From contig CM026426.1 in the NCBI GenBank assembly GCA_014871385.1, positions 39,215,799 to 39,279,798 on the forward strand: a stretch of 64,000 bases of DNA, written 5' to 3'. The translations under genes were made by a program, and so were the position numbers. The stretch comes from Ceratodon purpureus (taxonomy: Eukaryota; Streptophyta; Bryopsida; Pseudoditrichales; Ditrichaceae). Under the pieces are notes generated by a model, which saw only the letters and a list, made by a program, of their open reading frames with translations, ran no database searches and was not told the origin of the DNA. Numbering within the stretch: the first letter of the stretch is position 1; each line of letters begins with the position of its first letter. Positions 35,866 to 64,000 of this stretch are shown here, piece by piece.

Positions 35866-38800
35866 CTACTTCTTCGCCAAGGGGTGACGCAAGATTCCAC
35901 TCTCTAAGAGTAGCTTGACCTCGTTGAAGCTAAAGGTAGGCGCATGGATGAAAAGCTCGGCTTTAGGATCACGGTTGCAGACCTTCAGGAGCATGTAGTA
36001 TAGGTGCTTACAATACGTGAACTGAGTCCTCCCTGGGAACGTAGTCATCGTCTTCTGGGCAAGTGCAACCAGGGTAAGAACTGATGGTAATCTGGTACCG
36101 TGTGATGTGCGGAGCAACGCCGGAGTCCAGCCCAATGATGCAACCGTGGCCCGGCTCAGGTATCATGGTGATGGAACGGAGGCGCGCTTTGAGGGACTCG
36201 GAGGAGCCCATGGAGAGTCGCTGCGCCGGATTGGGACGAGTGGCAGTGCGCTTCACCATCTTGCCGCCTCTCTTGCCTGGGTAGCGGTCCACGTCTGCAA
36301 GGACTCGCACGAAGCTGAGATTTGCAGGGGGCGGGGCAGAGGAGAAGAGGCGTCTTAGGGAGACCGGCTTCTTTGTCGGAAGTTGAAAGTCTGCTGCTTT
36401 GAGGGCAAGAATCCCGGTGAGTTTGAGGTTAGTACCAAGTTTCACTGGCTAGACCTTTGGAATGGAGGGGAATTCCTGGTCCTTTGAGTAGAGTGCTATC
36501 CACTTGCGCTTAGAGCCTTTCACGCAGCGCTCAATATTGTCGTAGCAGAAGAAGAGCTCTGTCTTCTCAACTGTGTTCCTGCGATAGTTAGTCCAAAGCC
36601 CAGTGTAGGTCGGGGCAGCTGTGTAGTGGGGCCCCCTGACAATTATCTCAGTGCACTTCTTTTTCGTTTCAGCTCTTTGGGCCCAGCAGCACTTTGCAGA
36701 AGCTTTGTGAAGTCTCGAAATGTGCCACTCCTGCACATTGACCTTCGTTTCTTCAACCCCGTTGACATAGCAAATGCCGCCCATGTTCACAGGTGAAGGT
36801 AAAGGGGAATCAACTTCCTGGGCAGGAGATTGGGTACCTTCTTCCTCGGTGTCGTGTTCGGAGTTGTCTTCCACAATGACAGGCATCTGCATAGGGCGAG
36901 CCCTGACGGCACGTCTTCGGCCTCTTGGGCGAGAGAAGTTTGTCTTGTCCGGGCGATGAGACTCCTCGTCAGCTCCAATGGGAACGTTGGCTTTTCGCTT
37001 CTGTGAACCAAACACTTTCGCTCTAAGCATGATAGAATGACGGGTGCTGAACTCTTCTGCTCCTAGCATATTGAGCATGGGGTCTTTGAGCAGTGTAGGA
37101 TTTGTCCATTTCTTTGAGTTGCGTTCCGCCATCCAAAGCCTCAATTCCTTCTTCGATGGTCATGTTCCCCCGAAATCACCTTTGAGGAACTGGTAGTAGT
37201 TAACAACCCGTAGAAAAGCTCGAACGAAATCGTCCACGATAGCAACGTAGAGGTTGTTTCCGTTGTTTCCTGAAGCTTGGAGCCACTTGTTATGACCTGT
37301 TTCGGCGAGGTTACAGGTCGGCATCTCTGTGAGTTCTTCTGCCGTGAATTTCTGCAGTTTGGACAGTAGGAGCCGTTAGATTCAACGATTAGAGTTTTGT
37401 AGGTTAAAGATAGGGAAGCGGTATCAAAAACATTAAAGCATAGTACAGAAATCATATCGTGGTCATGAATCCCCCCCACTGGCGGAAGCGGTGGTGCTAG
37501 AATGACAGCCATTAATCGAGTTTGATGAGTCCGCTCGCGCCAACGACCCCGGTAGATGCCCACCATGCTCGCAACGCGAGATACAGAGTGTCCACCTTTG
37601 CCATGCTGGTCGCATTCTTGTACTGAGTACACATCTTCTTGTGCTATTCCCAGAGTTCGTCAAGGAAGTGCTTCTGCGAATACGCGACCATGTTCTGTGT
37701 CCAGTGGAACAAGCACAACCTCTCCCGGTCCTCCATAAGGTCCTCTTTGTTGCCATTGCCGTTTCGAATTAGCACTGCATTCGCCATGTCCGCCATGAAC
37801 ACCTTGAAGTTCACCGCTGCAATGCCATTGTTCTCCATGACCAGGTTCATTTTTTTCCAAAAGACGAACTGGGCCTCTGTGTCCTCGGACTGCATGTCGC
37901 AAGTGGCGATTGTCATCACGCGGCAATAGGTGGCGTCGTATACATGACACGCCATCGTCAACCACTTTTTGACGCGTTTTACATGGTCGAACATGATCCA
38001 TGCGTTCTCTAGATCTCCGCGAGCTTGCATTCGGCTGACCAAGTCGACACCACTTCCCGGCCCGACCTCCGACATCTTGAAGACGAAGACTTTGTCACGC
38101 ATAGCTCCTAGACCAGGAAACGTATTCTCTTGGACATACGCCCACAGACTATTTCCACGGAGCTTGGTGATACCTTCCATGATTATGTACCTTCTGATTT
38201 TTTTGAAGGTCGCGACTTTGTTGCAGATATTTTGTGACGCCATGTCTGTGCATCGATCCAGAACAGGAACCAGCTCCTCTATCGTCAGCTTCCTCGTTGG
38301 TGCATCCTCGGATTGTAGCACATAGCTCCCGATGAGGTGTTTGCTCGCCTCCAAGACAAGGACGCTCTTGGTTGCTTTCTTGTTCAACTCTACCTGCTCT
38401 TCTATTAAGCTACTGATCTCTGCTTTAGAGTCTCTGTAGTCTCCAACTTTCACTGGATGATCATGTGTTCCTATGTGAATAGAAGCTCTAGTCTGATTGG
38501 CTTTGCCCACTACGTAATAAATCCTAGCCTCGCATGTAGCTACACATGATGGAGGTTCTTTACATACCTTGCACACTAGCCTGGAGTCAGATGGAGGAGG
38601 CTGATCCATTAGAAAAGCTTGGAGGGTACACCCTTCAAACTCAGTCTCATTATCCTCGAAGATCTTGGGAACACGCTTCAGAAAGTCACACTCCTTGTTG
38701 CTGCAGCGCAGCCATCCGACGCAGGTGGAACTTCGAAAAGATAGTCTGAAGTCGTTTTTGATGTTTGTTGTGATGGTCTTGGTCCACAAGTGTCCGTCGT

Positions 38801-39603
38801 ATTGTTTGTCCATTCCCTGCATTGACTTTGCGGCGAGCTTAGAGGATCCTGCAGCAGCTAGGGGCAACTCAAAAAGAACCGGACCATCAAACTTCGCAGG
38901 CAAGTACTCTACTCTCTCGTGTCTAGTAGTGGAATAGTCTATCTTCTTTAGAATGTTTTTTGACCCACGCGCCTTCGCAAGCTGTTGAAGGAGGGGGACA
39001 ATGCTAACTCTGACTTGGGACAATGGAGGAGACACATTGGAAGGAGGAGCATCAGCGTGGACCTTAGGCACCAACTTGACGGGACTGACTTCGTCATCAG
39101 AGGAGAGAGATGACTGTCGGATGAGGAGGTTTCTCTACGTCTGAAGTTTCAGTACCAGACTCGACTTTGACCTTGACATCATGAGGTAAGGGAGTCTGAA
39201 TTGTGCAAGTAGAAGAGCGACGGGGGGTAAGGATCTCAGTAGATGCAGCCATCAGAGAATCAGTAAGACCGTAGACTCTATAGGATCCAGGGAAGAGTCT
39301 CCACTGCAACATATTATTCTCATCTCTCATTGAAGGTTGCCTGAGGGTGTGGGTAACCTCGGGAGTAACGTCATCAAAGATTTCCTCCTCTATACTGATG
39401 GAATCCTCACGGAAATGGAATCTGAGACTCAGGCGAAGAGAGGACACCGTAGCTAGACCATCGTCATCTACGCAAAAGCTAAGAGGGATACCCATGCTTT
39501 GGGCATACAAACAGACCATCCCCATGTTCGCAGGCAATTCAGTAGAACTAGTGGAAGAAGGGAGAAGAGTGAGTGTACTAGCGAAGCGGTATCGCGAGAG
39601 CAA
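35866..39603 (-). mobile_element. MULE-type transposase gene, copy 1 (degenerate)
   Basis: Four coding blocks on the minus strand. The N-terminal block (39603-39097; FREDSISIEEEIFDDV, YRVYGLTDSLMAAS) is followed after a frame change by the main block (39074-37644). That block has a Cys-pair region (CSNKECDF, CKVCKEPPSC) and IGTHDHPVK, a GTHxHP motif typical of MULE proteins. Next come VYDATYCRVMT, SEDTEAQFVFWKKMN and FMADMANAV, then CLFHW. These fit the acidic residues and the C..H element of a MULE DDE domain. The next block (37144-36449) has EWHISRLHKASAKCCWAQ. The C-terminal part (36445-35866) holds a SWIM zinc finger (CTCP ... YCKHLYYML) split by a one-base frameshift near 36040. A TGA at 37160-37162 interrupts PSKKELRL. 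Copy 2 at 54.6-51.1 kb aligns throughout. It is divergent from the ParB/methyltransferase gene at 40-46.6 kb. Confidence 0.75.
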
Positions 39604-40129
39604 AGTGAGAGGAATGATGCATCGCTGTTGATCATTTTATTCTAGTTGGAATTTTCATGTGGACGACTAGGTAATGATTCATTCTGTTATGTAAGGAATG
39701 TATGATTTAAGAGAGACGGCGCTAACTAATTAGAATGTTGCCTTTTGCAGACCCAAGTATACTAGGTTAGAGTTTTTAGAACTACGCTTTTAATATTTGC
39801 ATCGTGGAACCGATTCTATTCGATGTGAAGTTTGGTGAGATTAGAATGAGCCGTCAGTGGCTTTCATATGTAATACAAGTATTCCAGTGCTTAATTCAAA
39901 TCTTTTATTATTCTGCAAGCTTCTATTTTTCTCTAATAAAATAGATTGATCTCATCAGCTTTAATTCAAAATGCATTTATTTATAGTTTTCATTAATTTA
40001 AGTAGGTTAAGCATAAGGTAAGTATTTAGGGCTGAGTCAGAGGGGTTGATGGTTTGGGATATATAAGATGAAGGGAAGTTAGAAGGAGTGCTATATTGTG
40101 AGGAGTGTTCTCTCGTTAGTTAGACACAT
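39604..40129. promoter_or_regulatory. Intergenic region between divergent genes
   Basis: About 500 bp separate the MULE start (minus) from the first exon-like sequence on the plus strand. It is AT-rich with a TATA-like string (TATATAAG, about 40061). It probably holds both promoters of a divergent pair; this is inferred from the layout. Confidence 0.3.
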
Positions 40130-40560
40130 GAAGGAGAGTGGAGGTCAGCTCCCTCTACTTATGTCACTCCTAAACCTAGAAGAAAAGCATATGGTACAGA
40201 TTTTACGAATAGGAGAGCGAGGAAGAGGAGAGAATCACGTAGAAAGGAGAAGTCGAAAGGCAACCTCCTGAGTGCACCTCTGAAGGTTAGAGGAGCAGGG
40301 CTGCCTTTGGCAATTAAATTTTGTAGCATTTGTGAACTCATTCTAGAGTCTATAGTGGAAATAAAAGAGGAGGTTATAGATGTCACGGTTAGGGACCATG
40401 GTGTAGTAAACATGGACGATAAAAGTAATGAGATGACGGAAGATTTAGGGTTTAATGGTTTAGAAACACCACAGTATCCGCAGCCTTCGTTTGGCTTAAA
40501 CGAGTCACTTCCAGAAGAGAGTGCTCTAGGATCCACAAAGGATCGACTCTCTACTGAAGT
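40130..40560 (+). CDS. Basic N-terminal exon, probably of the ParB/methyltransferase gene copy A
   Basis: An open stretch without a clear ATG encodes a nuclear-localisation-type segment (NRRARKRRESRRKEKSKG). An acidic part and FGLNESLPEESALG follow, ending at a good donor (GAAG|GTAAGTT... near 40560). Copy B has a similarly basic first exon (55838-56104) in the equivalent position upstream of its ParB exon. I do not recognise a domain. Confidence 0.35.
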
Positions 40561-40911
40561 AAGTTACCGACGTTCCTTTTTAATGTTGAATGTGTATTGT
40601 TCAATTCTGAAGGAGACTGCTTTGTTTCTCATGTTATTGTCTTAAGTAGCATACTTTTAGTTGTAACCGATGTACTTTACAGTGCTTTATGTCTTGCAAA
40701 TTCTTAGTCATGTTTTAAGCGCAGTGTTCATACAGTAAAATTATGAATTCTCCTCTGTATTTAAGCTAACTTTGTTCTTTTTAGGAAGTGGACCGAGGGC
40801 GGAGGTTCTAGATTTGCTAAACAGAGTGGAGGAGTGAGAGGGGGTGATTCAAATGCTTCAGAAGGAACTCGTAACTAAGAGGGAGGTGTTGCGAGAGCGA
40901 GGAGAGCAATA

Positions 40912-41351
40912 ATGGAGGATGGGGAGGCTGTGGATTGCGAGCATGCGGCCCGCGGAGATTATCAAAAACGTGGGCGTAAAGGGGCGGTGCGGGGAGGGCG
41001 AGCCGGTGGAAGAGTAGGAGGCCGTCAGAGGGGTATAGAGGGACAGACTTCAAAGATGGAGGTCGGGAGCGGGCGCCGCGGAGGTGAGGGGCGGAGAGGG
41101 CGTCGCGGTGGGCGGGGAGCAGAACGTGGTCGCAACAACAAAGAGGAGGGCACCGATATGGCTGCCCGGGCTGGGGGGGAGAGAGAAGACTGGGATGGAG
41201 ATCCATGATCTGAAGAGCAGGGGGAGGATCAGGGGGTGGGACGAGAGGGCGAGGACCCAGAGTTGCTTGGAGAGAAAGACGACGACGAGGACGATGACGG
41301 GGAAGAGGACGACGACAATGATGGAGAAGATGACGACGAGGACAAGCAATA
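40912..41351 (+). pseudogene. Arg/Gly-rich protein with acidic tail, TGA between them
   Basis: MEDGEAVDCEHAARGDY begins a stretch rich in RGG/GGR (RGGRAGGRVGGRQRG, GRRGGEGRRGRRGGRG). A TGA near 41207 interrupts it. In the same frame an almost pure Asp/Glu tail continues (EKDDDEDDDGEEDDDN) to a TAA near 41349. RG-rich plus acidic tails are typical of nucleolar or RNA-binding proteins. It may be an exon of the ParB/methyltransferase gene or a separate gene. Confidence 0.35.
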
Positions 41352-41852
41352 AGAGGTTGGAGTAGAGGAGCAGAGAGAGCTACAGCGCCGCCGCTACACC
41401 AACGTCGAGGTGGATTTTTTGCTTGAATGTTGAATTTCTGAGGGATTGAGTGAGGAATGTGGGTTCAGGTGTTTGCTGGGGGTTTGTGGAGATTTGTCGA
41501 AATTGGGTTTGGGGTTTTGTGGAGATTAGGAGTTGGGTTGGTTGGATTCTTGAGGTTTGTATGCGGGATTTTGTTGGGGTTTGTATGTGGACTTGGGCTT
41601 GCGGGGCGGAAGTGCTTGGACTTGGGCTTGCGGGGCGGAGGCTTGGGCTTGCGGGGGCATAGGATGGCTTCAGTCTTTGTTTGTGAAGCATTCGGCCCCG
41701 AATAGATGTGCGGGGCCTCGAGCAGCCTGCAGCATGCGGAGGCTCGGCCCTTGTGGCTGGGCCGATGATGCAGCCAATACTTTCATTTATTGTCTGAAAT
41801 CTTCATTTTATCCCGGATGATTCTAATCTCCATTTCATTGTTTGTAATTTAG

Positions 41853-44800
41853 GAGTCATCTGAGGATAATATGGGGAGCCAAGTACAAGTACCGACTCCA
41901 GCGGAGACCGAGGTACTTTAAATTGTACCTTAATCCTTAGATGATTCACCATTTCTGAAATTACTTGTCTTATTTTATTACTCTTCAATTGGAACATAAC
42001 CTTTTTATTTTTCATAATCTAGGTATATTCCGATGCTTCAAAGCTGTCTGCAAATTCCCCCATATCAGTTATCAATGTCTTGACCTTTCGGATTCATTTG
42101 ATCGGCACTATTGTACTTGTGATGTAGCAGACCCTATAGATTTAGGTATCGTACCTGTAGAGATTTATTCTCCACAGTACATGCCTACATCCGCTGTCTA
42201 TGAGCCTACTTCCCCTCCATACATGCCAACCTCTCCTACACATGATTCACCTCCGATGTCTGCACCCTCTCCTTCCTCGCCTATTAGAGTGAGGCGGCCA
42301 GCCGATGTTGTGTTTGCCCTTCCGGCAATACTGCCGTGCCCTGTCCAACAAACCAGGCGATTTTGGAGGAGGCGCCGTCATTGGAACTGTAGACAATCTA
42401 GGGAGTATTATAGGCGTGCATCACGTAGATAGAGTCTTCAAACGCGTATGATATTGGAGTTGTTGTACTAGATTTATCATTATGAAGTGATATTGTTATT
42501 CTCTATTTCATATTTCTCTATTTTGCAAGAATTTTTGGGATACGATTCCAACATTAATTTGCACACCATTTTGCAGGTAACTCAAACACAAGATGGGTTG
42601 GTAAAACCATCTTGTCCAATAGACTTGAAGACTGCTTTAGAAGGCGAGTTGCAGCACCGCAAACAAAACAAGCTCGATTCCATAGGCGTCATCAACAAAC
42701 TAAGGAACAAACCGGAAAAGGAAGTCGCGCTTGATGGTGCCCTTGTGCAGGATGATCTCAATGGCCTAGGTTCGACGAGTGGGCAAAATGGAGGTACAGC
42801 ACTTGGAGCGGGAGTTTGTAAAGAGATATAGAGATGGGGACCGCGTCATGTACATCTCCATATACAACAATGAAGAGCAGACGAAGGACGTTACGGCGGA
42901 TATCATGGCTGGTTGGAGCCCTTTATGGAGGGCCGCGAGTGATCGTTTTGAAGATGAGATCCGTGGAGACGGGGAGTGGATGCAATTCGCGCACAAGATG
43001 TTTTTTGTCTAGGAAGGTAACCACCGCCTCGCTGCATGGCTCCGACATATAAACAAGCACCATGCGGACGACCCAACATAGCACATCTCTGTGCATTGCA
43101 TTGTACTAGACCGCCGCGGCCATGTGGGCAAGTTGCTTCACCCCATGCACAACATTAAGTGGTAAGTATCTCCGTTCTTTTCCTTGTTTGTACACATTCA
43201 AACTTTTCTGGTACTGTTTATTATTCCTCTAATATTCTACTTTGTTATTCACGTCGAATGAGAATGACCACGTCAAGAGTAATCTTCCAGCAAAGTTGTT
43301 TCGAATCCGCTCATTTGGGATGATGAAACTAGAGGATTTTAAAGACCTCCTTACCGTTGAAGAATATGATGCATGTCTGAAACTCAAGCCACCTAATCCG
43401 TCGTGGTTTCCCTTGACAACCAAAACTTTTATAGCATTTCTGTACCGAGTAAGTTTTACCAACTTCCTGCCTTTGCTTATGCAACTTGGATGATTTTTCA
43501 ATATTCTGATAAATAATTCTGTTTCAACAGCGGGAAATCGCAGTGGCCTCGGATGAAGCAGCGAGGGCCTACCTTGACAAGACACCAGAGGAGGAACAAA
43601 CTGCCAATGCAGTTTGGGATGTCATGACTGAGGCATGTGAAAGAATGGTCGAATCCTTCAAGAAGAAGGACTTTACCAAGTACTTGGCCATTGCAAATCC
43701 CAAGAATGGTGATGACTTCCTCAATGAGGTGACTCCCTTTCTAATACCATTTACAAAACTTTGTATGTCAACGTCATTTCTTTATTTCTTAGTGTCTAAA
43801 ATAATCGCTCTTCATGCAGATCAATCGACATTTCAGTGACTTCTCGAAACCGAAGATGACCCTTGAGAAGCTACAGAAAATTGTCCCAGCAGCAGTTGAG
43901 GCCAAATACAAGGCTCGTTAGTTGAGGTGGTGGAACTCATCCCCAAATTCTAGACTATCTTACAGATTCCTACCGCTCGAATTCAAGGAAACCGACCTCG
44001 ACCCTTGGTTGAACAAGGCTTCATTCTAGGCTGGGGTATATTTTTGACATTTATTATTTAAATTACATGATGATTTTTTATCTTTTATAAATTCTAGCTT
44101 GTCGCTAATATGTTGTCTTCTTTATTATAGTTGGAGGAAGCCGTCATCAATGAAGTCGAGGACATATGCAAAGCGGAGAACCTCTTCATCAATTGGAAGG
44201 ATTTTCCTGATGTCCAGGAACCGGGGGCTTATGTCAACAATTCACGTATTCTTTTATGGAACAAGGCCTTCCCCACGTTCCTTGGAAAGAAGGCAGAGAA
44301 GGCTTATGACAAGAAGTCGAATTTCGCAAAATTTCCTAAAAATGCTGAGGTTGTCAAGCGGGTTACTTACCGGTATGATACTTAACTTCATCTTAGTCGT
44401 TTTCCACAATAACGGGCTCTTTATTATTCTCTAATACTAACCTTCTATAAAATGAGTTTCTTTAGTACTTTAAGAGAGAGCTCGTTCCAAGAGGCGCCAT
44501 CACTGTAGCTTCCTAACTACTTTTCTGCTTGGACTTAGAGAAGCTTGGATCAGTGTATCTATTATCCTTAGCAGCTGAAAAGGTACAAAGCTCCCCACTT
44601 GGAAGCTGGATGCTGGTATCTTGATTGTTTTCGCGGTTTCACAATTGACTCGGAGGTGGACATCAAGACGTTACACGATGCCGGTGAGGTGGTGGCCGAA
44701 GACACGGTGGATGGTACTGAAGATGACGAAGGCCTTCAAGACCAATCATCATATCCTGCACCCAAGAAAGGGAGAGGGCGACTGAAATCTTTGCGTTCGC

Positions 44801-46571
44801 ATTCACAGGCATCACAGCAAATCGGTGCGGCGTCTTCTGTACCAGAACAGAAGGCACCAGAGAACTCTCCAGGTAAGGTCGTTACGAAGCCTTCTCCAAC
44901 TTCATCCCCCGCTCCTTCCTCGATCAGTGCTTTCGAGATCATTAGAAGTCTCCTTGAGCAGAGGAAGGCAAAAAAAATTCCGCAAATTACTTCTTCATTT
45001 GGAACTCCGCATTCCACACAGGTTTATGTCATCAACTCCTCTGTGGATTCGGTTCTGCTTCGACACAAGGAACTCTCTGACGTGGGTGGCGATCATGAAT
45101 GGAACAAGGCTCTAGACATCGTTCAAAAGGTATGATCCGTTGCTTAGTCCTTTCCCTTCGATATGTACAGTCATGTAAATCTTATAATGTCTAACTTTGT
45201 TTTCTTGGTTACTCAAGTTTGAAGCAAACCGCGAGAACCGAGTTCTGCCGAGATGCAAAGAGTATAATCACTTGGGATACGACTTAATCATTGTCGACAT
45301 TCTTGAGAATCTTCCAGTCCCTACGATATCCAATTCACCCTATGTCACTCCACCTTCGAACAAACGTGATAAGGAGTATTTGGAGGAACTCTTCGAATTT
45401 GCAAGACATTACTTGGAGCATGATGGTGCTCTGTGCATAATCCACAACAACGACCAAGATCTGGCTGTGAAGATTTCTGAAGTGACTAAACTTGATGGCT
45501 TCGTGCTGCACCGAGACTGGTGCGGCTTCAATGCACTAGGCTTGGCTCACCCTACCATCCCCGACTCCTTGGTATGTACATCATAATCATTCCTTGTCTT
45601 TGCATTCTGCTAAGCTTACTTATTAATTACACTCACATATTTTGGTGTCTTACAATCTCTTCGATTCTGGGTGCGCGTCTTCATTCGTGGTGGTCACCCT
45701 CCATCCAAGTTCTCTTTTCAAACGAAGAAATCTGATGTCGTATACAACGACCTCCAAATTACCGAGAGTGATTCCATTCTCAACTTCACCGATGTGGAAT
45801 CGCAGCACATGAATGGGGAGGTGCCGTGGAGAGGCCCAAGGGAGAAAGCCCCTGAGATGATGCAGGGCATAATTGAGGAGATGACCAAGCCCGGCGATAT
45901 AGTCTTTGAGTGGATGGCAGGAACAGGTAATCCTTCATTAACAGTTTCTGCATTTCCATCCTCTGATTTTCTCCACTAGGACTGACTTCTTTCTTGTGCT
46001 ACATGTTTCAGGTGCCTCCATCAAGGCTTGCCAGAGTATTGGTCGTCATATCATAGCTTGTGAGGAGGACAAAGCCATATTCAACGCCCTTCTCAAACCG
46101 TATATGGCTACGCCATCCGCCATGGGCCCTCCAAAACATCCTAGACCAGCAGCAGTTCAAGATGCACCTCCAAAGAGAGCAAGACGAGATAAGTACAGTA
46201 AGTTCTTCTTTACATTTTCTTACTTCAGGGCTAGTTCCCTTTGCTTCTTTATTGATTCCATCTTCACCTACTCATTCTTACCACTATCGATTTCCTCTTG
46301 CAGAGTAGTTGCGGCAACACCGCCATGTAGGCCAAGGCCCGTGTCCATTCCATCGTGGCGTCTTCATTCCAGCCCGATTCAGCCTTATATACTTCCGAAT
46401 TATGCAGAGGCCTTAGCACTAGCGCTCAAATCTAGAGCCCTTACATATGTTCCTAGTCGGCCAACTTCTTTTGATCCTAGGGCCCTTATATTTGTCGATG
46501 CAGAGGCTGTAGAAGGAGATTCAAAGTCACATGGTTCTGAGAGTGGAAGTAGCGATTGTAGCATGTTGTGA
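41853..46571 (+). pseudogene. ParB-like / permuted DNA methyltransferase fusion, copy A (degenerate)
   Basis: Many exons, each bounded by GT-AG sites, align with copy B. Order: a short exon (41853-41910); an exon with RNA-polymerase-II-CTD-like YxPTSP units (42166-42270); a ParB/sulfiredoxin-like exon ending at 43161; exons ending at 43449 and 43728; exons starting at 43820 and 44131; an exon at 44572-45129 with CWYLDCFRGF and a Ser/Pro linker; and a methyltransferase part. That part (45218-46197) holds YDLIIVDILENLP, HYLEHDGALCIIH, then FEWMAGTG|ASIKACQSIGRHIIACEED, which is the FxGxG S-adenosylmethionine-binding motif. The target-side motif precedes the SAM motif, as in permuted N4-cytosine/N6-adenine methyltransferases. 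A Pro-rich exon follows (46304-46571). Damage: a frameshift near 42770 and TAG at 43010-43012 and 43079-43081 in the ParB part. The methyltransferase part is open. Confidence 0.7.
42166..42270 (+). other. RNA polymerase II CTD-like YxPTSP units
   Basis: Within copy A the coding sequence reads YSPQYMPTSA, then VYEPTSP, then PYMPTSP. These imitate the YSPTSPS heptad of the RNA polymerase II tail. It is seen directly in one reading frame; the reading frame around it is not confirmed. Confidence 0.4.
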
Positions 46572-46811
46572 GTTTGAAAGAGGCTTCGGTCTATCATTGT
46601 TTTCATCTGATTTGATTTGATTTAATTGGAGTTGATTTCATAATCCTTCGTCTACTCTACTGCAAACACCCTAAAGTAGTTATGACTCTCATTTCTAGTT
46701 CGTATCCGTGTATGTAAAGGATGAAATGTCACAACTGTAATGCTCAAAATATATATAATGCTGTAATTACTTTCTTAATCATTCAAAATCTCACCCTAAA
46801 TCATAGCCATG

Positions 46812-47375
46812 TTACCTATTCTTAGGAGAGATCCAAATACCATCTCTCGGAGAAATTCTCTCTCCTTCCAGCACATCTAAGACCTGATTCCCATTGGCCA
46901 ATAGCAATGACCTCAACTGATCTAACTCAACGCAACTAAGTTCTCCAAGGGACGCTGTCTCTAACCTCTCGATGTAAATTGGATTTGCAAGTTTCCAAGA
47001 ACTCCTAAAAACACTCCAGTTGATGTTGAACCGATTAACTTCGTATTTGTCCTTCGGACTCCAATGGCGACCTTCGTACGAAAAGTAATCCCACCTCGCT
47101 AGCTGAAGGCATGCGTATTAAGGACTGCTGTCAATCTCACGCTTCCAACTCTTCGACACAGCACGAGCGCTCTCGACGTCTTCAAACGTGATTACAGTCG
47201 GAGGAGTCCAACCCTGCGTTGCACAACTACCTATATGATCCCAGGGGTTAGGCCCATTTGCCATCCGCTTGAGCAAATCTTGTAAAACCGTTTCACAGGC
47301 AACGACCTCAAATGAATCGCCCATACCTTCAAACAACTCCCTAGCAAGTACACGCTTAAGTTCTACAGTAATCAT
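46812..47375 (-). pseudogene. F-box-like protein, copy 2 (nonsense mutation)
   Basis: This copy aligns end to end with the F-box-like gene at 10.3-9.9 kb: VACETVLQDLLKRM, then VITFEDVESARAVSKSWKREID, then LQLARWDY, ERLETASLGELSC and a short extra tail ending ISPKNR. A TAA at 47118-47120 replaces the Glu codon seen in copy 1 (SSP-stop-YACL against NSPEFACL), splitting the frame. Everything after it is still readable, so decay is recent. It lies just downstream of ParB/methyltransferase copy A, in the opposite orientation. Confidence 0.6.
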
Positions 47376-50865: not shown

Positions 50866-51138
50866 CTACAGTGCCCAGCAGAGAAGTGATTGGAACAATG
50901 ATATGCAACATAACATACACACATACGCACGTACAACAATCAGCGACAGAAAGAGCAGTTCTGATAAGAATATAAATTACTATAGAGGACGTTGATTTCA
51001 AAACGGTGTACGGTCTCAATGGTCATGCATAAATCTAGTGGTGGGGTTAATACGGTCAGAAGCTTCCACCTTAGTCATTATATTCTGACAAAGCTAGGCC
51101 ACTGGTATACCGCCCTTTCAAACAAAGTTCGTTGTGTT

Positions 51139-54100: not shown

Positions 54101-54640
54101 CATCTGCAATTGGCAGTGTCTTCTCCTTGCTCTCATGGATCACCGGAATCTCTTCTGCGTTTTCACTATTGGAGTCATCACTCAGCTCATAGATGGTCTG
54201 AAGACTTGGCTCTGTCTTGACCTTCCTCAACAACGGTTCAGACTCAAGGCACACCGTTGTGGACGATTGGGGAGTAAGCAATTCAGTAGAGGCAGCTAGT
54301 AGAGACTCGGTAACTCCGTAAACTCTATACTTTCTAGGTTTGAGCATCCAGAACGTTCCAATCTCATTCTGAGTTGACAACTGACCCACGGCATGCGAGA
54401 GAGCACCAGTGATGTCGTCAAAGAACTCCTCTTTTATATGCAGTGATTCCTCACGAAACCGAAATCAAAGACTCAGAGTGGTGGAACTGATCATAGCGGG
54501 GCCATCTACACCCAGAGGAAAGGTAATCGGAACGGAATGCGAATCCGCACAAAGAATGACCATCGAGTTCAAATTAAGAGGCACCTGCAACAATAAGATC
54601 TGTAAAGAGGAATAAAAACAAAGAGGGACGCATAAGAATT
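51139..54640 (-). mobile_element. MULE-type transposase gene, copy 2 (degenerate)
   Basis: Same order of parts as copy 1. N-terminal FREESLHIKEEFFDD and YRVYGVTESLLAAS; the main block (54389-53121) with CDNVKCEYL, CKSCNTPPTC and GTHDHPVK; the catalytic region (53087-52449) with YDPTYCRIMT, FMADGAEAN and CLFHW; then EWHIARLPKTSAKACFAQ and a C-terminal remnant to 51139. In-frame stops, each placed where copy 1 has a sense codon, lie at 54465-54467 (TGA), 53121-53123 (TGA) and 52833-52835 (TAG). A further TAA lies at 52162-52164. The gene therefore cannot make a full transposase. Alignment with copy 1 is continuous but clearly diverged (under about half identical by eye), so this is an old relative. 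The SWIM finger seen in copy 1 is not clearly preserved. Confidence 0.7.
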
Positions 54641-54984
54641 CTTTAGTGGTTAAGTATGATGCCAAATATAATCATCGAGTGGTTATCTCCGAGTGGTGGA
54701 ATAGGAAGGAAACCGAATTTGCATGCTATAGCACTGTAATCTTAATGAGACGCTTTGTACGTACTTAGTTTGGCAACTGTAATTTATTACATAGGGATTA
54801 GTACACGTACCCGCCCTAATCAGCAGAATTAATCCAGAGTCTGAGATACGACAGTCATGACTGATTATGACAGCAACTTCCTAAAATATTATCCTCAAAA
54901 ATCGAATGAAATTGTTCAGTGTTACATTGGAACCACTCAATTCATAATGGTCTAGAAGTAACTAATAAAAGCAACCCCTGGGAC

Positions 54985-55491
54985 CTATATTTGATGACTG
55001 CGTTTCATAGATCGCTGAGCAGCAGCGGAATCATTATTACTATCTTCTTCTCCTCCTTCTGTGCTATGAAGTGCTCGGCATCCTCTACTCTGTAGCTTAC
55101 GTCCTCTGGGCCGCGGGGTACTTCTTAAAAGAAGTCTGGAATATGTTCCAGGCTTGATGACCCCTACATTTGCGTACACATGGGAAGCATTACTAGAATT
55201 GCCCTCGTACTCCTAAACTTCAAGAGTGGCTGCTGGCAACGACCGGTCACATTCTTTTGCATCCAAAGTCATCACATCCGAGTGTATGATCGGTGCCTTG
55301 CACTGGGTGCAATCAGGCAACTTGGACTCCTCAATTGGTTCAAAAGGCCCGTCAAAATTACCTAAGGACATGCTCTCCTCTCTCTCCTGCTGTGTAACCG
55401 GAACTGAATGAGGAGGGGATTGATGCGGGTCCATCACGTCAGGAGTAAAAATATCATGTGAGAAGTCCGATACTGAATGTGGCGTTTGCAT
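54985..55491 (-). pseudogene. Acidic Ser-rich hypothetical gene with one TAG
   Basis: MQTPHSVSDFSHDIFTPDVM begins a frame open to 54985 except for a TAG at 55213-55215. The N-terminal half is Ser/Pro/Glu-rich; the C-terminal half is basic (STPRPRGRKLQSRG). No domain is recognised. It sits just upstream of MULE copy 2 on the same strand and opposite to the first exon of ParB/methyltransferase copy B, so it may be an accessory gene of the unit. Confidence 0.3.
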
Positions 55492-55837
55492 ATCTTATAT
55501 AGAGATTGACAGAACTTGACATTGCATTGAGGAATTCTGTTTTGAATTTAAGCGGGTATAAATAAAGGGGTTTTAGTAAATGCAAGCGGCATATCAAAGA
55601 CGGCCGCTTTGAAGATATTCTTCTTAACATGCAGTAAACAGCTGACAGTATGAAAGTTGAACTAACTTTGTCTATACAGCAGTAATTAAGTCTTGGTTAC
55701 CGGATCTTAACCATGACATGCGCTGTAATGTTATCAAGCAGTCGAGTACATATGAACATTTGGTCTGTTCACAGATTGTTCAAGCATAGCAATGTCATGG
55801 ATAAAAGAGCGGGTTTTATTTTAGCATACAAGCAGAG

Positions 55838-56104
55838 ATGATAACCAGATCGGGTGCAAAAGCTAAGCTAGAATCTAGAAGAGAGCGACGTCTAGAGAGG
55901 TTACAGAAGTTAGCGCTTAGAGACCACATAGGTACACCATACAATTTGCGTTCAACCATGGGGAGGAAGGGAGGAAACTCTAGTTAAGTTGTTGCTCGAG
56001 GAGAAGGGGGTGACGGTGATGCGTTTGATGAAGCCGAGGTCCAGCCAAAGAAACTTCAGTTTCTTGCCGACGGCGGTTGTTCAACTTTAATAAAGACTAC
56101 AAAG
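55838..56104 (+). pseudogene. Basic first exon, probably of ParB/methyltransferase copy B
   Basis: MITRSGAKAKLESRRERRLERLQK starts a basic exon. A TAA near 55985 interrupts it after MGRKGGNSS, and the frame then runs (EAEVQPKKLQFLADG) to a consensus donor (AAAG|GTAAGT at 56105). Its position, divergent from the MULE-side genes, matches the basic exon of copy A (40130-40560). Confidence 0.35.
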
Positions 56105-56499
56105 GTAAGTTACGTTGATATGTAGTTCACATTCCAGTCACATAGTTGATTTCATACATTATTCACTGATTACTAGTTCATGTTAAAAAGAGACTTGTTC
56201 GAGCTAGAATGATTACCGCTGTCCATATTCCACTCATTTCATGCATTTTACTCCGAGTAGACTCAAGAGTAGTAAACAAGTATGTAGTAGTTTAATTACA
56301 TCATCTAGGGCAAGGGGACCTTAGGCAGTCGGTACACAAGGCACATGAGCCCATCTGAGGCTGTCTTCTGAAACCATGGTTCACTAGGTAATGCTTGGCC
56401 TCGAGGCATCCACCTCCCTGCAAGATCTGCAAAGTGCTAGCTCTGAAAACGCAATCACCGAACCTGTTCTAAGCTAGTGAAATTGTTTCGCAAGAAGGG

Positions 56500-56574
56500 G
56501 ATTTGCAGGAAGTGGATTTGCAGGAAGAGGATTCGCAGGAAGGGGCTTTGCAGGAAGGGGCTTTGCAAGTTCAA
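56500..56574 (+). repeat. 15-bp tandem repeats, possibly coding
   Basis: Five units of about 15 bp (GATTTGCAGGAAGTG-like) in a row. In one frame they read DLQEV, DLQEE, DSQEG, ALQEG, ALQVQ and stay open, so they could be part of an exon of copy B. The units are regular but not identical. Confidence 0.6.
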
Positions 56575-56879
56575 CAGAGGGGCAGTCGACATCAGTTTCA
56601 GAAGTCAGATTCTTATTCCTCCTGCCCTAAGCAGTCTCAAAGGATGGTGGAGTTAGGCGCCTCTTTACAAGCGGAAGCCTAGAAAATGAGATAGAGATTA
56701 GGTGTGCTCGGAGAGGAACACAGTGGGTTATCATTACGTGATCCTGTAAATCGATGTCGTGGGCTGTACATGTGTCAGTGAGCAACCATTTGTTGGGTTC
56801 TTCATCTGCATTATATGACTTTGTTAGACTATCCAAGCCTAGGCTGATTTGCGAACATTCCCCCCTACTCTACTTGGAT

Positions 56880-57220
56880 ACAAATCTGAATGCGAATTTT
56901 AATGAAAGGGCCCGAGCAGACTCGCAGCCCGCACTTAAAGGTACTAGAATTTAGTAGTGTAACCAGGAGAATGGGCCCGAGCAGACTCGCAGCAGGCTCT
57001 TCAAGAAACTAGAATGGGGTAGTGTAACAAAGTGAAAGGGCCCGAGCAGAATCGCAGTAGGCAGTTGGAGGTACTAGAATTCGGTAGTGTATTCAGGTGA
57101 AAGGGCCCGAGCAGACTCTTGCAGGCTCTCCTAGAGATAAGAATTCGGTAGTGTAATCAGGTGAAAGGGCCCGACCAGACTCTTGCAGGCTCCTCTAGAA
57201 ATTTGAATTCCGTAGTGTAA
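56880..57220 (+). repeat. ~65-bp minisatellite, block 1
   Basis: Five units spaced 64-65 bp apart (GGGCCC at about 56908, 56973, 57038, 57103, 57167). The core is GGGCCCGAGCAGACTCGCAG, followed by a variable arm and GGTAGTGTAACCAGGTGAAA. Confidence 0.85.
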
Positions 57221-57479
57221 CGTCACTTCTTGTCGAGTTTCCATGTGGCCCTATTATATGTTTCTGTCAAGGTCTTTGTGTATTTCGGTTTGGTTGGTTG
57301 AAGTTAAGTAAGTATGGTCTTAGGGCTGAGGCATATAGACCATCACATTCGGGCATATGAAGATTCTAGGACTGTTTGAAATCACAACATATACAAGGAT
57401 ATCATAGCCATTTGAAATGTCATTACTGCCTCTTCGTAGGTCACCATAGCCATATCATAGGTCATCATAGCGATTCCCA

Positions 57480-57945
57480 AGATCATCAGACTTGCAGCAG
57501 GCACTTGTAGGCAGTAGAATTGGGTAGTGTATGCAGGTGAAATGGCCCGAGCAGACTCGGAGCAGGCACCTCAAGAAATTAGAATTCGGTAGTATAACCA
57601 AGTGGAAGGGCCCGAGCAGACTCGCAGCAGGCACTTGAAGGTAGTAGAATTTGGTAGTGTAACCAAGTGAAAGGGCCCGAGGAGACTCTTGCAGGCTCTT
57701 CTAATAATTAGAATGAGGTAGTGTAACCAGGTGGAAGGGCCCAAGCAGACACCTCAGGGTACTAGAATTTGGTAATGTAACCAGGTGGAATGGCCCGAGC
57801 AGACTCGCAGCAGGCACTTGTAGGTAGTAGAATTCGATAGTGTAAGCAGGTGAAACGGCCCGAGCATACTCTTGCTGGCTCCTCTTGAAATTAGAATGAG
57901 ATAGTGTAACCAGGTGGAATGGCCCGAGCAGACTCGCAACAGTGT
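57480..57945 (+). repeat. ~65-bp minisatellite, block 2
   Basis: Seven units by eye, with one shortened (57738-57790), preceded by a segment containing CATAGCCAT repeats. The same segment precedes block 4 at about 60.75-61.0 kb, so both blocks belong to a repeated composite. Confidence 0.8.
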
Positions 57946-58129
57946 ATTAAATGACGAAATCAAGTGTAAAAACCGACAAAAGTAGATCTCAAAGACGAAC
58001 ATAGTCATTTTTGTACTTCTAACTATCATGAGTACGTAGATCCTCAGTTCATTTGTTGGTTCAGAAGTCTGCTCGGGCCTAATAACTACATATTTTGAGC
58101 TTATTCCTTGGTATTTCTCAAAAAAGCTT

Positions 58130-58345
58130 TTGGAATGATGTAGTGTAACAAGGTGACAGGGCCCGAGCAGACTCGGAGCAGGCACTTGAAGGTAGGAGAA
58201 TTCGGTAGTGTAACTAGGTGAAAGGGCCCGAGCAGACTCTTGTAGGCTCTTCTAAAAATTAGAATGAGGTAGTGTAACCAAGTGAAAGGGCCCGAGCAAA
58301 CTTGCAGAGGCTGTTCAATCAATTGCAAGGTGCAAGGGCCCGAGC
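58130..58345 (+). repeat. ~65-bp minisatellite, block 3
   Basis: Three to four units, the last two shortened. They are followed by isolated GGGCCGAGCA strings. Confidence 0.75.
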
Positions 58346-58840
58346 AGAGTCCCGGCAGGCTAGACACAGAGCTTAAAGAGATGTGCTGATGGTTTGCTCG
58401 TCTCCTAGCACGCTTGCAGCAACGTTGTTTGGACTTATTTAATGTCGTTCAGGTGGTCATTATCAATTGGTATGGGCCGAGCAAATTCAATTTCTTGTTT
58501 ATTTACTTGAATTCATCGAATCACAGAGGATAGTCAGGTGTGACATAGTGTACCAAACCTTCTGCTTTCCGTCATGGCTGCGAAGTTCTGTTGGGAATGA
58601 CGTGCATTGTTTTTTATATCAGGCCATATGTTGAGTTTAAATTGAAGCACGTGCTACTGGTCAATACTGATTCATATTGGATATTACTCTATCTTTGTTT
58701 GGCAACTATTGTGCTAGGTCCTCAACCATCTATTGCAGAACTTTGATCATGCACAATTTTGTACCTGCTGGGCTGCATTCTCTCCTAAAATTCGTATTCT
58801 TCATTCGCTATTTTAATGTGGTATTATGTGAGATTGTAGG

Positions 58841-61800
58841 AGCACCAACATGAAGTGGGAGGCATTCTGGATGAGTCACCACCGACCCTGACCCAAAAAT
58901 CGGACGGTCAAGATGGAGATTCAGATGGAGAATCGGACTCAACTGGTGATACATTCCTGGGGAATGAGGACCAAATTTGGAACCGCCAGAAGCTAAATTC
59001 TGTTTCGACAATTGCTGAGCTCCGAATGCAGCCACATTATGCATCAAAATTTGAAGTTCCTCTCTGCCGTATGCTTGCAATGCCGATGGTGCGGCCCACG
59101 TTACAGAGTGACCTGTCCAGACTTGAGCAGGAATTTGTGCATGGCTATGGCGAGGGTGCCTCAGTATTCTACTTGTCAACCACTGACAAGGAGGGGAGAA
59201 CCAGGGAGATTTCTGAAACAGACAAGGCCAAGTGGGGACCAATTTGGGACAAGAAAAACGATGAACTCAACAACCACCTCCTCTCCAATCCCGAGTTGGC
59301 TTCCCTTACCAATGTGATGTTTTTTGTTTGCGACGGTAACCATCGGTACCAGGCCTGGTGGAACCACATTGAGCGCCTGCACAAGACGGATGAGTCATGG
59401 CACTACTCGGTTGATTCTATTCTCTTGGAAACTAGAGGTAGAATTGGCCCAGTAATGCAGGTGATGCACAACATCAACAAGTGAGTTTCACCTTCAAACT
59501 ATAGCACCTTCAATACCCTCAGCTGTTTTAGACAACACTCTATAATGTAATTCTTGTGCTGATATTTTGCGTGACAGAAACACGGAGGATGCTCATGTTA
59601 AGACCAATCCAGTTCACACCCTCTTCAGGGTACACAAGTACGGCCTCATGCCACTGGAGCAATTCATTGATATTTTGTCAAGTACTGATTTGAAGAGGTG
59701 CAAGAAAACAAAGCACAGTACTTGGCAAACCTTGCCTGTCAACGTGTTCAGGAGTTTCATTTTCCAGGTACATTCTCATTATCCCCTTTCATTGTTATTT
59801 AATTTTTCTGCATGGTTGACTAGCTAATGATTTTAATAATCTCGAATGTTCCAAAAAACCACACGCAGGCTGTCCTAGTCTTTGTCGAATGCCATGGGGC
59901 ATCAGCAGTGGATCATCATCATGGTCCGCCATGGTCTATGTAGCATTACTCAGCATAATCCATCTTTGTCCATCGCAGACTATGCTAAATTCTATATTGT
60001 AGCATCATTATATCTTAGGTAGCTTGGCATTAAAGTACCATGTCTAAAATTAAGTTCGTATTTGACATTAAGTTGGTATTTGACCCTGTGGGAACTGGAT
60101 TGGTATTGCACCATGAGATAAGCCGTGCTGCCGATGATGGTCTTCGAGGATTCCTGGAACACAACGACGGCAATTTCACAGAATCTGGTAAGACTAGGGC
60201 CATGAAGGCCGCAGTGAAGAGCGAAACAAGAAAACTTCGCTCTAAAATGAGTAAGTTTATTGCCGTGGCAAACCCCGAACTGACACCAGCGTGGCTGCGT
60301 GAGGTAAGTATCCGTTCCTTATCCCTTAACACTATTATTTCCTAACTTCTTAACATTCATTTAAGCTCACAAAGAACCAGTGCTTTAGTCTCGAACAGTC
60401 TCTTCATATGTCGAAAGTTCACATCAATCTTGATAGTTTAATTTTGAATGAGAGTATTCAGATCAGTACCTCGCGTTTCCGTCTACCTCAGGTCAGTGCT
60501 CATTTTGCAGTGTCTAGGCAATGCTGGAGCAAGTGTGCTCGGGGCCAAGCACACTTGGGCACTCCCATCTCATGTCTGTTTTTCATCTCGAATCGATGAA
60601 TGTCGGGAGAGACGAATTCTGTCTGCGATAGTCCCAATCCAACTGTGCTCGGCCCCGAGCAGTCTCATTACCGAGGTTCATGGTGGCTGGGCTCTCCATC
60701 TATTTTGGGAACATAGACTTTCTAAGGCATTCTCTCACAAGATCAATTACGTCACTTCTTGTCGGGTTATTATACGGCCCTACTATCTGTTTCTGTCAAG
60801 ATCTACGTGTATTTCGGTTTAGCTGGATGAAGACAAGTAAGTATGGTCTTATGGCTGAGTCATATGGAACATCACATTCAGGCATGTGAAGATTCTAGGA
60901 CTGTTTGAAATCACAACATATACAAGGATATCATAGCCATTTGAAAAGTCATTATTGTTTCTTCGAAGGTCATCATAGCCATATCGTAGGTCATCATAGC
61001 GATTCCCAAGATCATCAGACTTGCAGCAGGCACTTGTAGCTAGTAGAATTCGGTAGTGTAACCAGGTGAAAGGGCCCGAGCAGACTCGCAGCAGGCACCT
61101 CAAGAAATTAGAATTCGGTAGTATAACCAAGTGGAAGGGCCCGAGCAGACTCGCAGCAGGCACTTGAAGGTAGTAGAATTCGGTAGTGTAACCAGGTGGA
61201 AGGGCCCAAGCAGACACCTCAAGGTACTAGAATTCGGTAATGTAACCAGGTGAAAGGGGCCGAGCAGACTCGAAGCGGGCTCTTCTAAAAATTGGAATTC
61301 GGTAGTGTAACCAGATGATAGGGCCCGAGAAGACTCACAGCTGGCACTTGAAGGTAGGAGAATTTGGTGGTATAACCAGATGAAAGGGCCGGAGCAGACT
61401 CGTTGCAAGCACCTCTAGAAATTGGAATTCGGTAGTGTAACCGGGTGGAAGGGCCCGAGCAGACTCGCAGCAGGCACTTGAATGTAGGAGAATTCAATAG
61501 AGTAACCAGGTAAAAGGGCCCGAGCAGAGTGGTAGCATGCTCTTCTAAAAATTAGAATGAGGTAGTGTATCCAAGTGAAAGGGCCATATCAAAGGTCATT
61601 ATAGCAATGTCGAAGGTCATCATAGCCATCAGTCAAGCAGTGACCATTTTTCTTATTGCAGAGATTTCTGTTGGTCTAACAATCTCCTAGTTGGATTCTA
61701 ACAATCGTACTTTCCCGTTCACTGGCAAGTGGAGCGGCATTATTCATCTAACACCACCAACACAGAGCTAACCATGGAAAAGTTGCAACTCATAGCCACG

Positions 61801-64000
61801 GCAAAGGCTACCCCACGGCGAAGATCAGATGGCTTCAATTCTTCAACTCCTCTGCGGCCACCCGTGAGGCTCGGAAGATCCCACCGAAGCCCGTCAACGA
61901 AGAGAGGCTGTGATCCTGGCTCGCGAGGGCAACTTTCTGGGCAGAGGTATGTTGCTATTCATTTAGCACTTTAAATTTTTTGACTTGGATATATAATAAC
62001 TAGATTCTAGCTAACTACTGTCTTTCTCAATTGCACATATCAGCTATCAGAGCAGTTGTCTGCAAGTTTCGAGGAGATTGTGTGACAGGACCAAGTCAGT
62101 ATTGACATGACAGTCTCCACTGAGCCGATGACTCTAGTAGCTTACGTGGAAGACTGCCGAATGAAGCTCTGAGACCACGTTTTCAATTCATACTTCCGAG
62201 GAGTCGAAGGTTTCCAGAAACAACTCGAATTTCGGGAGTTCAAGGGAACAGACCTCGTTGTCAGACGAGTTCTATTCAGGTGTACCCTTATGTTCCAGTG
62301 GTTTGCACAGTCGTGATGTTCATAAGCTCCACTGGTTAGTGGTTCGTTATTGGGAGTCCTGAAAATTGCGTGGCCGCTATGGTAATCATTTGTGCCAGTC
62401 AAATGGTCTCGAGTATGCTTATCTGAATATGCTTTATACATAATGACCAGAAAGGCTCCATTTGCTATGCAAATTGTGACCATGCTAGGCTTTTAATCAC
62501 CCGGCCATGCCCGCGATGTCTAAGAATACCATGCCCTCAATTACCCTTCTATGCTGCCCCTATTTATCATGCTACGCATAACATGCTGCAAAGGGATCGG
62601 ATTACGGTGCTCATGAAACTGGTGATGGAACTCTTGCAGATATTTCAAGTATGAGCTCTTGGCCAAGCAGGCAATCAGAAAAAGGGAATCTCCCAATTTT
62701 TCTCACCGCATGGGTCGACAGATCGAATGAAGCATGCATGTTCTCAGGTTCACAGCAGCGGACATGGACAACTTCTCATCTTACAGCTGGAGCATGGTAC
62801 TTGGACTGTGTGCCATGTTTTACTCCATCCTTCGAAATCGAGCTGCGGAAGTCCAGGGATGCCATCGGTGAGTCCGGTATTGAAATGGTGGATCTTCAAG
62901 GTATTAGAGGATGAAACTGAGCGGGCCAAGGCTCTTAAGAGAAGGATCGAGGAGGACCGGAAGAAGGCCCAAAAAGTAAGAGAAGCCGAGGAGAGGGCCG
63001 AGCAGAAGGAGCTGGAGAAGGAGCTGAAAGCAAAGGAAAAATCGGGCAGAACGGGCAAGAAGAAAATCAACACCCCTGGTGAGGATGATAAGAATAGTCC
63101 TTCTGGCAATTCCGGGCAAAAAGAGAAAAACAACTCGAGGGGTACAAAAAGAGGATCTTCCTATGATCAGCTCAATCAACTCCTGGAATTCAACGATGCT
63201 GGGGAGTGTGGCCAGAATTCCGAGTTAATCCTCAAATCATCCCTCATAGATGTACTCGCAGGCAGTGGTAATGAATTCACTCCCATGTACCTGGAGATCA
63301 AGCGTACCCTACTTAAGGTAATCCAGATCACATGCATTTCGAACTTGTTATAATTTTCGGATGAATTTGCTCATGCCATGATGCCATGGGCATCCCATGA
63401 TGTGCCACGATGCCATGGTCGTGGCGGGTAAGGGCCTCTGCACCAGCTTGCTAATGAATTGCCCACCAGCTTGCTCTTGACCAGCTTGTTTAGATGATAT
63501 TCCTTTGTCAGGTTTTGTGCTTTTTCTCCTGGTTTTTGTTCTTGATTTTATCCGTGTAACTTGGTGGCCTGACCCGAGCAGAGTCTAGAGCAATGACAGT
63601 GCAGCCGATCTGAGTTGGCCTTTTGAAGTGATGCGTGTATTTGCAGCTCGGTTTATTTAGAACCATGCTCTTAACAACCTCACGTGGTTTTGACTTTCGA
63701 CCATACCACTGACTTCTCTTGAAATTGAATACCTGTACAGGTCACCAATGGGAGAAGCCTCTTCATGAGTGGGAAACAGATGAAACATCACTTTGTCGAC
63801 CTTATTATTGCGGATCTACCTGAGGGCCTTCCTGTCCCCGGCGTTTCAGACCCACCTATATCCATCCCTGCTTGGAACGAAGACTCTACTGATTTCTGGC
63901 AGAACACCTTCGACTTTGCCGAGAACCACCTGCATGATGACGGAGCCATGATTTTTTTTCATCCGTATCATGCAGCAACAAAATCAAATATCCTAGGTTA
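58841..64000 (+). CDS. ParB-like / permuted DNA methyltransferase fusion, copy B (runs off the window)
   Basis: Exon 58841-59480 encodes an acidic N-terminus, then LSRLEQEFVHGYGEG and a ParB/sulfiredoxin-like core (MFFVCDGNHRYQAWW at about 59317-59361; the DGNHR loop is the signature). Exons 59578-59767, ~60118-60303 and ~61725-61946, and further ones near 62043-62280, 62640, 62756 and 62900-63317, align with copy A and share its boundaries. They include AGAWYLDCV and a Lys/Glu-rich linker (EERAEQKELEKELKAKEKS). The last exon (63741 to the window end) has FVDLIIADLPEGLPVP, DPPIS and LHDDGAMIFFHP, the target-side motif of a permuted methyltransferase; the SAM-binding motif would follow outside. 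A TGA at 62170-62172 lies in one weakly supported exon, so integrity is uncertain; the ParB and methyltransferase exons are open. Substrate is unknown. Confidence 0.7.
61020..61590 (+). repeat. ~65-bp minisatellite, block 4, inside an intron of copy B
   Basis: About nine units, again led in by the CATAGCCAT-repeat segment (60750-61020) that also precedes block 2. Its position within an intron of the methyltransferase gene gives a date later than the gene itself. Confidence 0.8.

What the first reader, a model, noticed from the sequence alone, without database searches (positions are those of the whole stretch)
35866..64000. Divergent MULE transposase plus ParB-methyltransferase pair, present twice
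Twice in 28 kb a minus-strand MULE-type transposase (39.6-35.9 and 54.6-51.1 kb) is followed in divergent orientation by a plus-strand gene with a ParB/sulfiredoxin-like domain and a permuted DNA methyltransferase-like domain. The two MULE proteins and the two ParB-methyltransferase proteins are each well diverged, yet layout and intron positions are kept. The unit therefore looks like a co-inherited mobile system rather than one recent segmental duplication. ParB-like domains joined to N6/N4 methyltransferases are known mainly from prokaryotes and phages; a spliced eukaryotic form carried by a DNA transposon would be new to me. It might mark the element's own ends or modify host chromatin.
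Basis: partly seen in the sequence, partly recalled or inferred. Interest (0 to 1): 0.9.

Follow-up and report, generated by a model that had tools for sequence, protein, structure and literature searches.

The report
Moss jumping gene carrying ParB-methyltransferase-like gene
A large, multicopy DNA transposon in a moss genome carries, beside its transposase, a second gene that joins a bacterial-type ParB domain to a DNA-methyltransferase-like domain with an altered catalytic motif, which suggests that the transposon brings its own tool for acting on DNA or chromatin.

Summary
Both units are transposable elements: E1 (window 34214-47950, 13,737 bp) and E2 (49151 to 3.9 kb past the window, 18,768 bp). 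Each has terminal inverted repeats holding tandem GAGCGG-type 7-mers and a 10-bp target-site duplication (9/10 in E1, 10/10 in E2). E2 interrupts another transposase gene whose uninterrupted relatives align without a gap across the junction. Two further E2-type copies (C1, C9) have the same ends, exact 10-bp duplications and the same divergent pair. Among E1-type transposase copies, the partner gene was found in 3 of 3 loci read over 10 kb and 8 of 12 systematic samples read over only 1.5 kb, divergent in all 11; four are unresolved. The ParB exon is under purifying selection between E2-type subfamilies (median dN/dS 0.11). Its predicted fold matches ParB/Noc/KorB and sulfiredoxin. The MTase part passes the Pfam N6_N4_Mtase cut-off, but motif IV is D-x-P-E-[GN]-L-P (22 of 23 rows), never DPP[YFW]. 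Corrections: both window copies are damaged, and the transposase matches no Pfam MULE model, so 'MULE' rests on terminal anatomy and motifs. The protein's function is inferred: most likely an element-encoded factor acting at the element's own ends.

The parts
34204..34213 (.). E1 left target-site duplication copy, GTTTGGGAAG
   Evidence: matches GCTTGGGAAG at 47951-47960 in 9 of 10 positions
34214..47950 (.). Element E1, 13,737 bp
   Evidence: terminal repeats and 10-bp duplication
34214..34300 (+). E1 left terminal inverted repeat with GAGCGG 7-mer array (34231-34250)
35866..39636 (-). E1 transposase gene (MULE-like); long open exon 37644-39134; C-terminal CxC...CxH (SWIM-like) part at about 35.9-36.4 kb
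   Evidence: ORFs; 238 homologues of the long exon; 86 genome matches listed
40124..40645 (+). E1 ORF with basic region (STYVTPKPRRK...RRARKRRESRRK), similar ORF in L062; upstream exon of the partner gene or a third gene
41959..42432 (+). E1 ORF with Y-x-P-T-S-P-x heptads and a basic tail, similar ORF in L062 (2503-2952, minus); upstream exon of the partner gene or a third gene
42585..43161 (+). E1 ParB-like exon, decayed (two in-frame TAG); start approximate
   Evidence: sequence against the open ORF in L062
44572..45130 (+). E1 partner-gene exon between ParB and MTase parts
   Evidence: similar exon in L062, L065, L068, L069
45188..45571 (+). E1 MTase exon with motif IV (DILENLP)
45650..46200 (+). 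E1 MTase exons with motif I (FEWMAGTG)
   Evidence: joined MTase part: Pfam N6_N4_Mtase 32.8 bits, cut-off 26.7
47890..47950 (-). E1 right terminal inverted repeat with GAGCGG array
47951..47960 (.). E1 right target-site duplication copy
49141..49150 (.). E2 left target-site duplication copy CAACCGTATG; the second copy lies 3.9 kb beyond the window
   Evidence: 10 of 10 identical
49151..64000 (.). Element E2 (total 18,768 bp, right end beyond the window in L010)
   Evidence: terminal repeats, duplication and empty site
49151..49230 (+). E2 left terminal inverted repeat with GAGCGG array (49168-49208)
51139..54640 (-). E2 transposase gene, decayed (in-frame stops)
   Evidence: against open exons of copies A and B
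55213..55494 (-). Small ORF conserved in copies A and B; possible third gene
58840..59482 (+). E2 ParB-like exon, open, 214 aa
   Evidence: 226 homologues; 151 genome matches; fold
62782..63319 (+). E2 partner-gene exon between ParB and MTase parts (extent approximate)
   Evidence: similar ORF in copy A
63729..64000 (+). E2 MTase exon with motif IV (DLPEGLP), continuing beyond the window; motif I exon (FDCTAATG) also beyond

Best explanation
The finding shows two members of a large family of MULE-like DNA transposons (the four read in full are 13.7-21.6 kb) in a moss, most likely Ceratodon purpureus, on its large sex chromosome. Each element has terminal inverted repeats built around tandem GAGCGG-type 7-mers, inserts with a 10-bp duplication, and carries two divergent genes: a transposase, and a spliced gene with a ParB/Srx domain and an N6_N4-MTase-like domain. 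Shown: the unit moves as one, the pair recurs, and the ParB exon is kept by purifying selection. Inferred, about 0.4: the second protein is an accessory factor that recognises the element's own repeat arrays through its ParB part and lets its MTase-like part modify, or merely bind and shield, the element's DNA against host silencing, in the manner of VANC in Arabidopsis VANDAL elements. The conserved but altered motif IV (D-x-P-E) suggests that its chemistry is not that of an ordinary adenine or cytosine-N4 methylase.
Confidence: 0.75

Rival explanations
1. The ParB-MTase-like protein is an active DNA methylase that places its own mark (6mA or 4mC, or another base) on the element, used to tell element DNA or fresh copies from host DNA during transposition.
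For: Joined E1 MTase part passes Pfam N6_N4_Mtase (32.8 over 26.7 bits). Motif-I-like FDCTAATG / FEWMAGTG is present. Retrotransposon-borne methylases that methylate de novo exist (PMC5890265, abstract seen).
Against: Motif IV is D-x-P-E-[GN]-L-P in 22 of 23 rows and DPP[YFW] in 0 of 23. Loss of the aromatic residue argues against ordinary base flipping and transfer (established knowledge of these enzymes, recalled).
Confidence: 0.25
2. It is a transposition accessory factor (end synapsis, copy control or nuclear delivery) with no epigenetic role, like the second genes of MuDR-type elements.
For: Shared terminal arrays and recurrence of the pair. Second ORFs occur in several MULE groups (PMC6446971, passages).
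Against: Does not explain keeping a methylase-like domain; no direct evidence.
Confidence: 0.25
3. Passenger: a captured host gene carried along without a role for the element.
For: MULEs tend to acquire host gene fragments (PMC6446971, abstract start in the listing).
Against: Purifying selection between E2-type subfamilies (median dN/dS 0.11); presence in two lineages whose ParB parts are only about 41% identical; about 118 of 150 listed ParB matches without a stop (counted by eye).
Confidence: 0.05
4. Not a mobile unit: two neighbouring genes duplicated by ordinary segmental duplication.
For: The two units lie side by side, 1.2 kb apart.
Against: Separate target-site duplications, E2 empty site, no match between A and B outside their ends, copies on C1-C13.
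Confidence: 0.01

Closest known systems
VANDAL elements with VANC (Arabidopsis MULEs; PMC5735166, abstract seen; PMC10398659, listing only)
   Same: MULE-type element with an extra gene; targets of VANC often form tandem repeats in the elements
   Different: No ParB or methyltransferase-like domain is named in what I saw; sequence relation was not tested
MuDR and other MULEs with second ORFs (PMC6446971, passages of its Table 1)
   Same: Terminal inverted repeats, duplications of 8-11 bp, in some groups a second ORF; SWIM-type finger in many groups
   Different: Extra motifs and ORFs in the passages seen (SET, FAR1, PMD, DUF, MutB, ovarian tumour gene) do not include ParB or an N6/N4 methylase; the transposase here is unseen by Pfam MULE
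Retrotransposons with C5 cytosine methyltransferases (PMC5890265, abstract seen)
   Same: Eukaryotic mobile elements that carry DNA methyltransferases
   Different: Retrotransposons and C5 enzymes; here a TIR DNA transposon with a ParB domain and an N6/N4-type domain
Prokaryotic and phage proteins joining ParB with N6_N4_Mtase (recalled)
   Same: Domain order ParB then MTase
   Different: Here spliced and longer, with D-x-P-E motif IV; no phage record matched the ParB exon and no IMG/VR relative was found
Canonical PF10551 MULEs of the same genome (L001-L008)
   Same: Same genome; one such gene is the target that E2 interrupts
   Different: No detectable profile relation to this transposase (7 rows)

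Membership tests
Mutator-like elements (MULE) | Target-site duplication of 8-11 bp | tested here: met
   10 bp in E2, A, B (10/10) and E1 (9/10); range from PMC6446971 passages
Mutator-like elements (MULE) | Terminal inverted repeats | tested here: met
   67/80 (A), 64/80 (B), 53/94 (E2) and 56/88 (E1) alignment columns identical over the first 80 bp
Mutator-like elements (MULE) | Transposase related to PF10551 MULE domain | tested here: inconclusive
   0 of 30 members match PF10551; hhalign against 7 canonical copies probability 0.1%, but those 7 rows are of low diversity
Mutator-like elements (MULE) | D...D with C-x2-H after the second D, SWIM-type finger | tested here: inconclusive
   HVYDxxYC in 23, F[MI]AD in 29, CxFHW in 25 of 30 rows; D-D spacing 49 in the 6 rows printed; CxC...CxH at the C-terminus of A and B. 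Motif definition recalled; catalytic role not tested
ParB/Srx superfamily | ParB/Srx fold with DGxHR-type motif | tested here: met
ParB/Srx superfamily | CTP binding and clamp closure on a parS-like site | not testable with these tools
   needs biochemistry
N6_N4_Mtase (PF01555) | Score over Pfam cut-off | tested here: met
N6_N4_Mtase (PF01555) | Motif IV (D/N/S)PP(Y/F/W) | tested here: not met
   DPP[YFW] in 0 of 23 rows, D.PE[GN]LP in 22 of 23; not filed as an active methylase for that reason
VANDAL/VANC anti-silencing system | VANC-like protein with target repeats and methylation loss | not tested
   no methylation data here; only repeat arrays at the ends were seen

The most novel reading that the evidence does not exclude
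A eukaryotic DNA transposon uses a partition-style module: its ParB-like protein loads at parS-like GAGCGG arrays in both terminal repeats, perhaps spreads along the element as a nucleotide-gated clamp, and brings a repurposed methylase-like domain (D-x-P-E) and, in E1-type elements, Pol II-CTD-like Y-x-P-T-S-P-x heptads to keep the element open or transcribed against host silencing.
Probability: 0.15. Interest if true: 0.92.

Novelty: new variant of a known kind. Interest (0 to 1): 0.76.

Why it matters
Mobile elements that carry DNA-modifying or anti-silencing genes are rare test cases of how transposons fight host epigenetic control. This family couples a prokaryote-type ParB to a methylase-like domain in a multicopy plant transposon with well-defined ends, so it makes testable whether ParB-type loading on terminal repeats occurs in eukaryotes and what an N6/N4-type domain with a D-x-P-E motif does. 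It also shows a transposase family that Pfam does not recognise.

Tried and rejected
Rejected: segmental duplication, and a single-copy host gene (see rivals). Profile searches for ParB (Pfam, NCBIfam, PDB sequences) gave nothing convincing; only weak TIGR04172 DGQHR (1 of 51 members) and DUF1015 (5 of 51). MTase exon profile and transposase profile against PDB sequences: chance-level matches only. A first fold model was poor (pLDDT 45.8) and was not searched. A CCTATGACCGTG motif at window 213 looked like another element end, but no GAGCGG array lies beside it in the first 480 bases: treated as chance. Viral and phage relatives of the ParB exon: none found. I compared by eye the truncated E1-type transposase list with the E1-type MTase list: hardly any rows lie within 20 kb of each other. 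Both lists are top slices of 2,429 and 1,552 candidates, so I take this as uninformative, but it is not support.

In one search some queries (ParB_E1a, ParB_E1b, MT4_E1, MT1_E1, midE1) were translated in a wrong frame by my coordinates; their rows are ignored. In one search minus-strand loci were misoriented; its dN/dS results were replaced.
Full report
Setting. The window is G000:C6:39215799-39279798 of a 362.5-Mb genome; C6 is 110.5 Mb. Ceratodon purpureus has a 360-Mb genome and U and V chromosomes over 100 Mb each (PMC8000587, passages seen), and the one match that bears an organism name is a C. purpureus hypothetical protein, KC19_5G032000 (91% identical over 37% of the query). I therefore take the genome as C. 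purpureus and C6 as a sex chromosome; this is an inference.

The two units are transposons. Self-comparison of the window extended by 21 kb showed inverted end repeats around each gene pair. E1 spans 34214-47950 and E2 49151 to 67918 (window numbering continued beyond 64000). Their ends begin GGACG or GGG(G)AAA, carry runs of GAGCGG with a 7-bp period, and are flanked by 10-bp duplications: GTTTGGGAAG/GCTTGGGAAG for E1 (one mismatch) and CAACCGTATG twice for E2. E2 sits inside a gene of another transposase, of the PF10551 type. With one duplication copy left out, its flanks align without a gap at the junction to two uninterrupted genomic relatives, L006 and L007 (83% over 1,130 columns). The 18.8-kb unit therefore moved as a whole. 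For E1 no empty site was looked for.

Recurrence. The E2 ParB exon has 151 matches in the genome (1,881 first-look candidates, 150 scored), with several groups of copies on different chromosomes having identical scores. Two copies of one such group, chosen because they looked recent, were read in full: A (C1:783575-804144) and B (C9). Homology between them starts exactly at the left terminus and stops at the right terminus, with duplications GAATAACGAA and AGTAAGATGG. Both contain the transposase as two open frames (740 and 490 codons), the ParB exon and the MTase exons in divergent order. A and B are 99.4% identical over the transposase half and 88-96% over the main aligned stretches of the rest.

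The E1 transposase exon has 86 listed matches (2,429 candidates, 86 scored); 82 of 86 show no stop, and 10 of 86 lie on C6 (counted by eye, the window copy included). For three copies (not random; C3, C2, C9) 10 kb upstream was read: ParB exon on the opposite strand in 3 of 3. For 12 copies (every seventh rank) only 1.5 kb, 7.0-8.5 kb upstream, could be read. A ParB exon lay there in 4 of 12; with the other exons of the same gene as probes, 8 of 12 had the partner (L065-L069, L072, L075, L076), all divergent. L070, L071, L073 and L074 had none. L071 has DNA similarity to non-coding element DNA (71% over about 700 bp, higher over short pieces); for L070 another 2 kb (L080) was also empty. These four are unresolved. 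The ParB query hit 0 of 10 loci fetched for other reasons, eight of them only 3.3 kb long. In the protein database, transposase P0188 and MTase exon P0125 both give a longest contig of 18,151 bp, which suggests, without proof, the same pair on one contig from another source.

Selection. Among 30 E2-type ParB exon copies (E2 and L014-L042, the best-scoring ones), 24 have no stop. The 135 pairs with dS over 0.1 give a median dN/dS of 0.11, range 0.10-0.19; these pairs largely repeat one contrast between subfamilies and are not independent. E2 itself against L014 is less constrained (dN 0.033, dS 0.083), and three close E1-type pairs give 0.18-0.55 at dS of 0.02-0.05. L050 against L053 has dN 0.25 with saturated dS. 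Purifying selection over the longer distances argues that the protein is needed for the element's spread.

The transposase. 238 homologues were found, the best 120 listed. None of 30 aligned members matches the Pfam MULE model, and hhalign to seven canonical MULE rows of this genome fails. Motifs fit a MULE-type DDE enzyme as I recall it: HVYDxxYC in 23, F[MI]AD in 29, CxFHW in 25 of 30, with a C-terminal CxC...CxH. I call it MULE-like.

Damage. The E1 ParB exon has two TAG codons where L062 has Trp. The E2 transposase has in-frame stops where A and B are open. Neither window copy is intact, though each keeps some open exons.

Function. Shown: mobility as a unit, recurrence of the pair, selection, fold or family of the two domains. 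Inferred: recognition of the terminal GAGCGG arrays by the ParB part, and anti-silencing or shielding. The nearest functional model is VANC, whose targets often form tandem repeats (PMC5735166, abstract seen). Active self-methylation and a plain transposition role remain open. Literature: no paper was found with the four words Mutator-like, methyltransferase, ParB and transposon; the listings showed no such element in titles or abstract starts. These searches cover an open-access library only. Passages of Table 1 of PMC6446971 name extra ORFs and motifs of MULE groups without ParB or N6/N4 methylases; the whole table was not read.

Noticed in passing
window 41959-42432 and L062 2503-2952 (minus): ORF upstream of the E1-type ParB exon has heptads Y-x-P-T-S-P-x (five in L062, about three in E1) resembling the Pol II C-terminal domain, followed by a basic stretch; similar ORFs in L072 and L075.
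   Followed up: partly
window 1617-2738 (+) and 15521-16570 (-): Two diverged copies of a protein with a GHGKGxxDGAGAxVK motif, probably from another mobile element.
   Followed up: no
window 8234-8854 (+): ORF that looks by eye like a SET-domain histone methyltransferase piece.
   Followed up: no
window 56.9-58.3 and 61.0-61.6 kb: Minisatellite of about 65 bp (GGCCCGAGCAGACTCGCAGCAGGCAC...) in E2, in two blocks, the second within the ParB-MTase gene region.
   Followed up: no
copies A and B (L043-L049): The transposase half is 99.4% identical while the rest is more diverged (88-96%), which suggests exchange of halves between elements.
   Followed up: partly
   Followed up: no
window 55213-55494 (-): Small ORF conserved in copies A and B between transposase and ParB gene; possible third gene.
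   Followed up: no
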